In this document: one piece after another, positions 22,740 through 38,756 of the stretch
Position numbering within the stretch: position 1 is the first letter of the stretch
Layout: each line of letters starts with the position of its first letter
Assembly: GCA_947628585.1 (NCBI GenBank)
Contig: CANRAL010000009.1
Location: 1-38,839, forward strand
Origin: an uncultured Bacilli bacterium
Lineage (GTDB): Bacteria > Bacillota_I > Bacilli_A > RF39 > UBA660
Direction: 5' to 3'
DNA: 38,839 nt
The notes under the pieces: generated by a model
The model's input: only the letters and a program-made list of their open reading frames with translations
Database searches by the model: none
What the model was told of the DNA's origin: nothing
Translations under genes and position numbers: made by a program

Positions 22740-22745
22740 ATTGAC

Positions 22746-22816
22746 GTGCAACAAATATATTGTAATCTGGTCAGAATCGGAAGATAGCAGCCACGTCAAT
22801 CCCTATTTGTGTGCAC
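22746..22816 (+). ncRNA. ffs: Small bacterial SRP RNA (4.5S type)
   Basis: Conserved apical domain GGTCAG-AATC-GGAA-GAT-AGCAGCC; closing helix GTGCAACAAATA/TATTTGTGTGCAC. Confidence 0.93.
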
Positions 22817-22835
22817 TTTTTTTAGGAGTAAAATT

Positions 22836-35953: not shown

Positions 35954-35982
35954 TTGACATTATTACTCATAAATGGTATAAT
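35954..35982 (+). promoter_or_regulatory. Perfect consensus sigma-A promoter
   Basis: TTGACA-N17-TATAAT with TGG extended -10. Confidence 0.88.
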
Positions 35983-35988
35983 GATATT

Positions 35989-36307
35989 GTTTCCATTAAG
36001 GAGGAAAGGTTGAAAAAATAATGACAAAATAAGCATGAAAAAAAGATTTTGAGAAAAAAATCGCAAAATTTCAAGTTTATAATAACAAAAATAAAATATT
36101 GTTGTAGGCATTGACTGAAAATTCTCAAACTAGAAAACAAGAAATGATTTTCACATAGATAAGGTTCCGTGCTCAATAAAGGCAACACTCATTTGTACAC
36201 CGAGAATAATCGACACATATAAAAATACGGGTTTAAGATAAGATTCTTAACACCACTCACCTCGCCGTGCTCTGTAGTGTACCTGCAACAAGTAGTTATT
36301 ATAAACA
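35989..36307 (+). ncRNA. Candidate structured RNA or long structured leader, family unassigned
   Basis: Consensus promoter; long-range arms GTTTATAATAAC (36075-36086)/GTTATTATAAAC (36295-36306) and TTGTTGTAGG (36099-36108)/CCTGCAACAA (36282-36291); local GC rise; no plausible ORF. Confidence 0.6.
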
Positions 36308-36325
36308 AAAAAGTTTAAAAGTCAA
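36298..36325 (-). promoter_or_regulatory. Near-consensus minus-strand promoter
   Basis: Minus strand TTGACT-N16-TATAAT. Confidence 0.6.
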
Positions 36326-36344
36326 TTTTTCAAATCAATTTGTG

Positions 36345-36364
36345 CCTTTCAGAGGACTGAAAGG
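36345..36364 (+). other. Stable hairpin in leader of 3D-domain gene
   Basis: CCTTTCAG-AGGA-CTGAAAGG, no T-run after it. Confidence 0.7.
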
Positions 36365-36390
36365 ACGATAGAAAGGAATGTTAGTTAAAT

Positions 36391-36930
36391 ATGAAAAAAT
36401 TAATCAATTATACAATTCGTTTAATATTGATTATTTTAATTGTTTTGGTAGCTAATACTTCAGTTAATATATATGAAAATAAAATTGAAAATACAAATGT
36501 AAATAATACAGTTAATTTATCTACAATGGCTTTAAAAGTTGTAGAAATTAATTTGGCAGATAAATTTACCGCGAAAGATACTTTTACTGGTGATTTAACG
36601 GGATATGCTTATAATTGTCCATTATGTGGTGGTACTTTAGGTTGTTTACCAAGTTATTATATAAAAGACGGAACTGTAACTTATCCTGATAATGATTACG
36701 GAGTTGTTCGAATTGTAGCATCAAGTAAAAATTTACCATGTGGTTCAATTGTTAGATTTAATAGTGATAAAATATCTAATGAAGAAACTTATGCAATAGT
36801 TTTGGATAGAGGGGTAAGAGGAAATGCCTTAGACTTACTTGTTCCTAGTGAAGAATATGCTTCAACTTATATTGGTCGTAGTTCTATAACATATGATGTT
36901 TTAAGAAATGGTTGGTCTAATGGAAGCTAA
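36391..36930 (+). CDS. Secreted 3D-domain protein (YabE-like position)
   Basis: N-terminal signal/TM; 3D-type core GYAYNC...YAIVLDRGVRGNALDLLV; between tatD and rsmA. Confidence 0.8.
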   Translation: MKKLINYTIRLILIILIVLVANTSVNIYENKIENTNVNNTVNLSTMALKVVEINLADKFTAKDTFTGDLTGYAYNCPLCGGTLGCLPSYYIKDGTVTYPDNDYGVVRIVASSKNLPCGSIVRFNSDKISNEETYAIVLDRGVRGNALDLLVPSEEYASTYIGRSSITYDVLRNGWSNGS

Positions 36931-37696: not shown

Positions 37697-37758
37697 AGAG
37701 AAATATTAGAGAAATATTTTTCTTTTTTTATTCATATATTTTACTGGTGAATTGTAAC

Positions 37759-38532
37759 ATGGAAATTAAAAAAGGCGATTTAGTTACGCGAAGTAGCTAT
37801 CATAATGATATGGTTTTTAAAGTAGTAAATATAAAAAATGGCATATATTATCTAAAGGGAATTGAAGAAAGATTATATGCTGATAGTCCTATGGAAGATT
37901 TAAACATTTATGTGGAAGAAAATAAAGAAGAAGAGTTTGAAGTTGATCTAGAAACAAATACACTAGACCGAAGTGACTACTTTTATTTACCAGCTAAAAT
38001 ATTACATATAGATGGTGATGAAGAATATTTAAACAGATGTTTAAAGTTTTATAAAAAAAATAATATTATGGCTATTGGAAAAAAAATAAGTGAAAAAAAT
38101 ATGTATGAACAATTAAATCAACTATTAATTGAATATAAACCTGATATATTAATTGTAACCGGGCATGATGCCTTTTATAAAAAAAAGGGCGACAAAAATG
38201 ATATAAATAATTATAAAAATTCTTTATATTTTGTTAAAGCTGTTAAAGTCGCTAGAAGTTATGAAAAAAGTCATGAAAAATTAGTTATTATTGCTGGTGC
38301 TTGTCAAAGCGATTATGAAGAGTTAATTAAAGCAGGGGCTAATTTTGCCTCTAGTCCCAAAAGAGTAAATATTCATACTTTAGATCCCGCTATAATTGCA
38401 TCTACCATCGCTTTAACCGAAAGAAATAAAGAAATTGATTTAATAGAACTTTTAGAAAAAACAAAATATGGTAAAGATGGTATGGGCGGAATTATTTCTA
38501 ATGGTTTAATGTATGTTGGTTATCCAAGATAA
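37759..38532 (+). CDS. yabG: Sporulation-specific peptidase YabG-like
   Basis: KKGDLVTRSSYHNDMVFKV; VTGHDAFYKKK; GACQSDYEELIKAGANFASSPKRVNIHTLDP; position between rsmA and veg. Confidence 0.92.
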   Translation: MEIKKGDLVTRSSYHNDMVFKVVNIKNGIYYLKGIEERLYADSPMEDLNIYVEENKEEEFEVDLETNTLDRSDYFYLPAKILHIDGDEEYLNRCLKFYKKNNIMAIGKKISEKNMYEQLNQLLIEYKPDILIVTGHDAFYKKKGDKNDINNYKNSLYFVKAVKVARSYEKSHEKLVIIAGACQSDYEELIKAGANFASSPKRVNIHTLDPAIIASTIALTERNKEIDLIELLEKTKYGKDGMGGIISNGLMYVGYPR

Positions 38533-38543
38533 AGGGAGGAAAA

Positions 38544-38756
38544 ATGAATCTTAATATTGTTAAGGAAGAATTAAAGAAAAATTTAAATAAAAAAGTAAGA
38601 GTAAGTGTATTTGGTTTAAGAAATAGAGTAGACCACTACGAAGGAGTATTATATAAAATTTATCCTAATATTTTTACAGTATTAATACGAGGAGAAGAAA
38701 AAAGTTTTACATATCGGGATGTAATAACTGGTGAAGTCAAATTAAAATATTTGTAA
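38544..38756 (+). CDS. veg: Veg-family protein
   Basis: NLNIVKEELKKNLNKKVRVSVFGLRNRVDHYEGVLYKIYPNIFTV; downstream of yabG. Confidence 0.88.
   Translation: MNLNIVKEELKKNLNKKVRVSVFGLRNRVDHYEGVLYKIYPNIFTVLIRGEEKSFTYRDVITGEVKLKYL

What the first reader, a model, noticed from the sequence alone, without database searches (positions are those of the whole stretch)
35954..36390. Unexplained structured RNA locus upstream of the 3D-domain gene
A textbook promoter (TTGACA-N17-TATAAT with extended -10) starts a transcript near 35989 with no credible ORF for about 400 nt. Two nested long-range pairings enclose about 230 nt: GTTTATAATAAC/GTTATTATAAAC (12 bp perfect) and TTGTTGTAGG/CCTGCAACAA (10 bp with one G-U on the plus strand). 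Inside are TGAAAAT/ATTTTCA, GTACAC/GTGTAC and TTAAGA/TCTTAA pairs, a direct repeat CCGTGCTC (about 36167 and 36262), and a clear local GC rise in an AT-rich genome. No clear terminator precedes the 3D gene, so it may be a leader riboswitch or a stand-alone RNA.
Basis: partly seen in the sequence, partly recalled or inferred. Interest (0 to 1): 0.72.

Follow-up and report, generated by a model that had tools for sequence, protein, structure and literature searches.

The report
Transposase-less IS110 element with bridge RNA
The 'unexplained RNA' is a 381-bp mobile element that has lost its transposase but kept the guide RNA of IS110 transposons, and across many gut bacteria that guide matches the start-codon side of ribosome-binding sites, which is where the copies sit.

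Summary
Window 36008-36386, plus a duplicated AA core, is a transposase-less IS110-family insertion element of about 381 bp. It lies antisense between the native Shine-Dalgarno (SD) and the ATG of the 3D-domain gene. The structured RNA is encoded on the minus strand, with a TTGACT-N16-TATAAT promoter at 36325-36298, and is an IS110 bridge RNA. In full-length relatives the same RNA lies just upstream of an IS110 RNA-guided transposase. In this family's genomes, every copy with a readable left flank follows CATWWNT, the reverse complement of a start codon with its upstream bases. The RNA carries a matching segment, TATWWNT, whose variable letters equal the copy's own target in 30 of 33 copies (shuffle mean about 9.5). 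Inferred empty sites have an SD in 19 of 20 cases. IS900 is already known to target such sites. What I found no report of is a guide-only, presumably trans-mobilised, IS110 element with naturally reprogrammed start-codon guides. Transcription and mobility were not shown.

The parts
35954..35982 (+). Native sigma-70 promoter of the 3D-domain gene, not part of the element
   Evidence: the same promoter stands at the same place in empty relatives
35998..36004 (+). Native Shine-Dalgarno AAGGAGG of the 3D gene, now separated from its ATG
36006..36007 (.). One copy of the inferred core dinucleotide (AA on +, TT on the element strand)
   Evidence: removing the element and one core gives CCATTAAGGAGGAAA|ATATGAAAAAATT, against CCATTAAGGAGGAAAAATGAAA in relatives
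36008..36386 (-). Transposase-less IS110-family element (right end at 36008, left end at 36386)
   Evidence: repeat copies; ends shared with transposase-bearing IS110s
36387..36388 (.). Second copy of the inferred core dinucleotide
36298..36325 (-). Promoter of the bridge RNA, TTGACT-N16-TATAAT, inside the left end
   Evidence: 11/12 matches; conserved in copies
36095..36291 (-). Predicted bridge RNA body (transcript ends not mapped)
   Evidence: alignment A2 of 25 copies; covarying helices
36282..36291 (-). 5' half of closing stem P1 (pairs with 36099-36108)
   Evidence: 5 pairs with changes on both sides
36099..36108 (-). 3' half of closing stem P1
36221..36227 (-). Left target guide TATTTTT (TATWWNT in the family), reading the start-codon side of the target (CATWWNT)
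   Evidence: 30 of 33 copies match their own target; at least 5-6 independent changes
36256..36263 (-). SD-like loop GAGGTGAG, putative right target guide
   Evidence: the transposase-group-2 RNAs have other SD-like sequences at this position; inference
36161..36166 (-). Left donor guide AACCTT, matching the element's right end CAACCTT
36128..36138 (-). Putative right donor guide GTTTTCTAGTT, matching the left end discontiguously
   Evidence: weak
36167..36174 (-).
36265..36272 (-).
36075..36086 (.). Subterminal inverted repeat arm, right
   Evidence: similar inverted repeats in full IS110 copies
36295..36306 (.). Subterminal inverted repeat arm, left; contains the minus-strand -10
36345..36364 (.). 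Palindrome CCTTTCAGAGGACTGAAAGG near the left end, shared with transposase-bearing copies
36371..36379 (+). SD-like GAAAGGAAT carried by the element, now the nearest SD to the 3D ATG
   Evidence: conserved at the left end of copies; function inferred
36391..36930 (+). 3D-domain gene (YabE-like position), target of the insertion

Best explanation
The locus is a non-autonomous IS110-family element of about 381 bp that keeps both ends and a bridge RNA gene but has no transposase. From its own promoter on the minus strand it would transcribe a bridge RNA. An IS110 recombinase supplied in trans would use that RNA to join the element's circular ends (donor loop) to a target (target loop). The target loop's guide UAUWWUU pairs with the gene-sense AAWWATG around a start codon, and a second, SD-like loop probably reads the Shine-Dalgarno side. 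The element therefore lands antisense between SD and ATG, and its own end carries AAAGGA, which may replace the lost SD. Shown here: mobility in evolutionary time, the ends, the empty site, linkage of the RNA to IS110 transposases, guide-target concordance, and covarying RNA helices. Inferred: transcription, trans-mobilisation, the SD-reading guide, and translation from the element's SD.
For: Second copy in the same genome at 95% and a third end elsewhere. Copies in 29 of 293 family genomes, including complete copies at 77-100% identity in other genera. In G012, G023, G094, G263 and G273 the same RNA lies just upstream of an IS110 transposase; the G012 one has PF01548 and PF02371, NCBIfam NF033542 'IS110 family RNA-guided transposase' and sequence homology to the solved IS621 recombinase. 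Full elements share the ends ACATTCCTTTC and TTTTCAACCTT. The orthologous tatD-3D leader is empty in same-genus genomes. Target CATWWNT occurs in 32 of 32 copies analysed; the variable guide letters equal the target in 30 of 32 there, against a shuffle mean of 9.5 and maximum of 19 in 20,000; one further mismatching copy, L110, is. Near-identical RNAs with different guides each match their own target in nearly all cases, and the two variable guide columns changed 6 and 5 times on the tree. Inferred empty sites have an SD in 19 of 20, against 12% of background sites, p = 2e-16. The donor loop carries AACCTT, the right end. A related group with transposases about half identical shows the same logic with longer guides, e.g. 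CATACTAAC, CATATTAAG, CATAATAAC. Helices covary: covariation score 0.276 against 0.143 shuffled, 0 of 500 as high.
Against: No cognate transposase (at 1e-20) was found in the window's own draft genome, only a distant IS110, although copies sit at contig breaks. The window copy's guide (TATTTTT) has one mismatch to its target (CATATTT). The right donor guide match is loose. SD distance from the core varies, so the SD-like loop is not proven to be a guide. Selection against insertions inside genes could contribute to the start-codon pattern. No expression data. The minus strand's folding energy alone is unremarkable (z = -1.4).
Confidence: 0.86

Rival explanations
1. A plus-strand leader riboswitch or cis-regulatory RNA of the 3D gene.
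For: Strong plus-strand promoter and plus-strand fold z = -2.6.
Against: Absent from the same leader in relatives, which go from promoter to SD to ATG in about 25 nt; the same sequence sits before unrelated genes and is tied to IS110 transposases.
Confidence: 0.03
2. A degenerate, immobile remnant of an IS110 that happens to keep the RNA end.
For: No cognate transposase in the draft genome; window guide mismatched to its target.
Against: Both ends kept; complete copies of the same size at 96-100% identity in several genera; guide-target concordance across copies and covarying helices imply continued selection. This one copy may still be inactive.
Confidence: 0.08
3. A mobile cis-regulatory module (portable 5' leader) kept because of its effect on downstream genes rather than a selfish element.
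For: Copies with a readable left flank lie just before a start codon and bring an SD-like GAAAGGAAT.
Against: Position is explained by the guide alone; downstream genes are unrelated; the orthologous sites examined at the 3D gene are empty.
Confidence: 0.05

Closest known systems
IS110-family bridge RNA systems (IS621, ISCro4; PMC11208160, PMC11208158)
   Same: Bridge RNA encoded in the left end upstream of the recombinase; [quoted passage not shown] donor guide matching the right end; core dinucleotide at both junctions; DEDD plus Tnp_20 recombinase in the full relatives.
   Different: No recombinase in this element; promoter lies inside the left end rather than being rebuilt across the circle junction; target is the ribosome-binding site; the SD-like loop precedes the left target guide.
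IS900 of Mycobacterium avium subsp. paratuberculosis (IS110 family; PMC8141618; Doran et al. 1997 from memory)
   Same: Target motif CATGNNNNNNTCTCCTT, i.e. reverse complement of SD plus start codon.
   Different: IS900 is a full 1,451-bp element with transposase, from another phylum; no paper in the searched library links it to a bridge RNA.
IS1111/IS110 seekRNAs (PMC11187229)
   Same: Two short guides to opposite target strands; natural reprogramming between close relatives; IS1111 elements also have subterminal inverted repeats, and top-strand complement before bottom-strand match.
   Different: Here the RNA is upstream of the transposase, as in the IS110 type, while the proposed guide order is IS1111-like.
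Prokaryotic MITEs (e.g. review PMC10969869)
   Same: Short, multi-copy, transposase-less, keeps parental ends, presumably mobilised in trans.
   Different: No terminal inverted repeats typical of MITEs; carries its own targeting RNA. IS110 is not named in that review.

Membership tests
IS110 family (autonomous element) | DEDD + Tnp_20 recombinase gene inside the element | tested here: not met
   No ORF of note in the element; no cognate transposase in the own draft genome. Present in full relatives.
IS110 family (ends and junctions) | Shared left and right ends with IS110 copies; no long target duplication, short core at both junctions | tested here: met
IS110 bridge RNA | Structured RNA in the non-coding end next to the recombinase in autonomous copies | tested here: met
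IS110 bridge RNA | Left target guide identical to the left target and covarying with it | tested here: met
   30 of 33 copies; near-identical pairs; the window copy itself has one mismatch
IS110 bridge RNA | Right target guide complementary to the right target | tested here: inconclusive
   SD-like loop in both transposase groups but SD spacing varies
IS110 bridge RNA | Donor guides matching the element's own ends | tested here: inconclusive
   Left donor guide AACCTT matches in the copies examined; right donor guide only loosely
IS110 bridge RNA | Transcribed and bound by the recombinase | not testable with these tools
   Promoter only
Riboswitch or known Rfam family | Rfam match at gathering score | tested here: not met
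MITE-like non-autonomous element | Multiple short copies with parental ends and no transposase | tested here: met
MITE-like non-autonomous element | Terminal inverted repeats | tested here: not met
   Only a 12-bp subterminal pair; ends ACATTCCTTTC and TTTTCAACCTT are not inverted repeats

The most novel reading that the evidence does not exclude
A class of guide-only IS110 parasites programmed against ribosome-binding sites: one loop imitates the Shine-Dalgarno, the other the start codon. They borrow recombinases in trans, retarget themselves by one- or two-letter guide changes, and re-supply an SD so that each insertion is nearly silent, acting as portable leaders.
Probability: 0.4. Interest if true: 0.78.

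Novelty: new variant of a known kind. Interest (0 to 1): 0.6.

Why it matters
Bridge RNAs were described in 2024 for autonomous IS110 elements. A natural element with only the guide RNA and the ends would be ready-made evidence that donor plus bridge RNA can move in trans. Its near-identical copies form a natural set of guide/target pairs showing how guides are reprogrammed. It would also give an RNA basis for the old observation that IS900-type elements insert into translation start sites.

Tried and rejected
Rfam at gathering score and relaxed: only noise at this locus, so no known riboswitch family. Plus-strand leader RNA: rejected by the empty orthologous leaders. Viral contigs for the RNA pattern, and plasmids and phages by blastn: no match; three IMG/VR contigs hold related transposases only. 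Core placement as CA/TG: rejected because it would need AAGGTTGAAAA at the empty sites, which relatives lack; TT/AA restores normal SD-ATG spacing. Intrinsic terminator for the minus transcript: none reached the scan's threshold; the A+T hairpin at 36046-36069 followed by U's on the minus strand remains only possible. Guide rewriting from the target was considered; guide columns change no faster than other loop columns, so it is not needed. A first try at the site table missed most start codons through a window error and was redone. Structure prediction of a protein was not needed.

Full report
Observation.

It is a mobile repeat. The stretch has a 95% copy elsewhere in the same draft genome and relatives in other genomes, often at contig edges. 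In a sample of 293 family genomes 29 have a match; complete copies of about 373-391 bp occur in several other genera. One of them (G235) is reported as 100% identical to the window's, and the alignment shows a single different letter, in the guide. Named copies are in uncultured Bacilli/Tenericutes MAGs. Orthologous tatD-3D leaders in same-genus genomes lack it: promoter, SD and ATG follow each other within a short leader. Removing 36008-36388 from the window gives CCATTAAGGAGGAAA|ATATGAAAAAATT, close to the relatives' CCATTAAGGAGGAAAAATGAAA.

It belongs to IS110. In G012 and G023 the reverse complement of 36093-36285 lies immediately upstream of an ORF beginning MFKTIYKNCAGIDVHK. That protein carries PF01548 and PF02371, is named IS110 family RNA-guided transposase by NCBIfam and resembles the IS621 and ISCro4 recombinases of solved structures. 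Transposase-bearing elements share the left end ACATTCCTTTC, the palindrome CCTTTCAGTCCTCTGAAAGG (in G094 and G263) and the right end TTTTCAACCTT. The window element has these ends but no transposase. The own genome has only a distant IS110 transposase, with the caveat that repeats break this assembly.

It carries a bridge RNA on the minus strand. A promoter TTGACT-N16-TATAAT (11/12) lies at 36325-36298.

The guide reads the start codon. On the element strand every copy with a readable left flank is preceded by CATWWNT, the reverse complement of the bases around an ATG. The RNA contains TATWWNT in an otherwise nearly invariant context. Across 32 copies the four variable letters equal the copy's own target in 30 (shuffles: mean 9.5, maximum 19 of 20,000); a 33rd copy, L110, mismatches as the window does. 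Pairs of RNAs that are 99-100% identical around the guide but differ in the guide itself mostly match their own targets, and the two variable guide columns changed 6 and 5 times on a tree built without them. The window copy is one of three with a mismatch (guide TATTTTT, target CATATTT); its closest twin has TATATTT, so either its guide mutated after insertion or one mismatch is tolerated. By the rule published for IS621 (PMC11208160) this segment is the left target guide.

Inferred empty sites are ribosome-binding sites: 19 of 20 have an SD against 176 of 1,439 background sites. A second transposase group, 47-49% identical to the first, behaves alike with longer guides such as CATATTAAG, CATAATAAC and CATACTAACC, and at the position of GAGGTGAG has other SD-like strings. 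I infer, but have not shown, that this loop is the right target guide. The donor loop carries AACCTT, the element's right end; the right donor guide is only loosely supported.

Known background. Bridge RNAs and seekRNAs are established for IS110 and IS1111 (PMC11208160, PMC11187229). IS900 has the target motif CATGNNNNNNTCTCCTT (PMC8141618), so targeting translation starts is known. Searches of the held library found no report of a transposase-less IS110 element that keeps its bridge RNA, nor of IS900's bridge RNA; most subscription papers and all preprints are outside that library. I therefore call it a new variant of a known kind.

Not shown: transcription, protein binding, mobilisation in trans, and whether the AAAGGA carried by the element (13 nt before the ATG) supports translation of the 3D gene.

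Noticed in passing
window 22740-22825 +: Bacterial small SRP RNA (RF00169, 52.7 bits).
   Followed up: no
window 37747-38756 +: ORFs that look like YabG (sporulation protease) and Veg, in the Bacillus order tatD-3D-ksgA-yabG-veg, in a 1.24-Mb genome; from memory, not tested.
   Followed up: no
L086 about 1130-2830: A 432-aa ORF resembling an ISLre2-type transposase (from memory) sits inside the left end of an IS110 copy.
   Followed up: no
L057 1879-3339: The gene downstream of the G235 copy belongs to a family with more than 25 matches in that one genome.
   Followed up: no
L004 3-578 -: A reverse-transcriptase-like ORF (by eye) lies near the G012 IS110 copy.
   Followed up: no
window 36371-36420 +: The element's GGAATG could start a short out-of-frame ORF overlapping the 3D start.
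   Followed up: no
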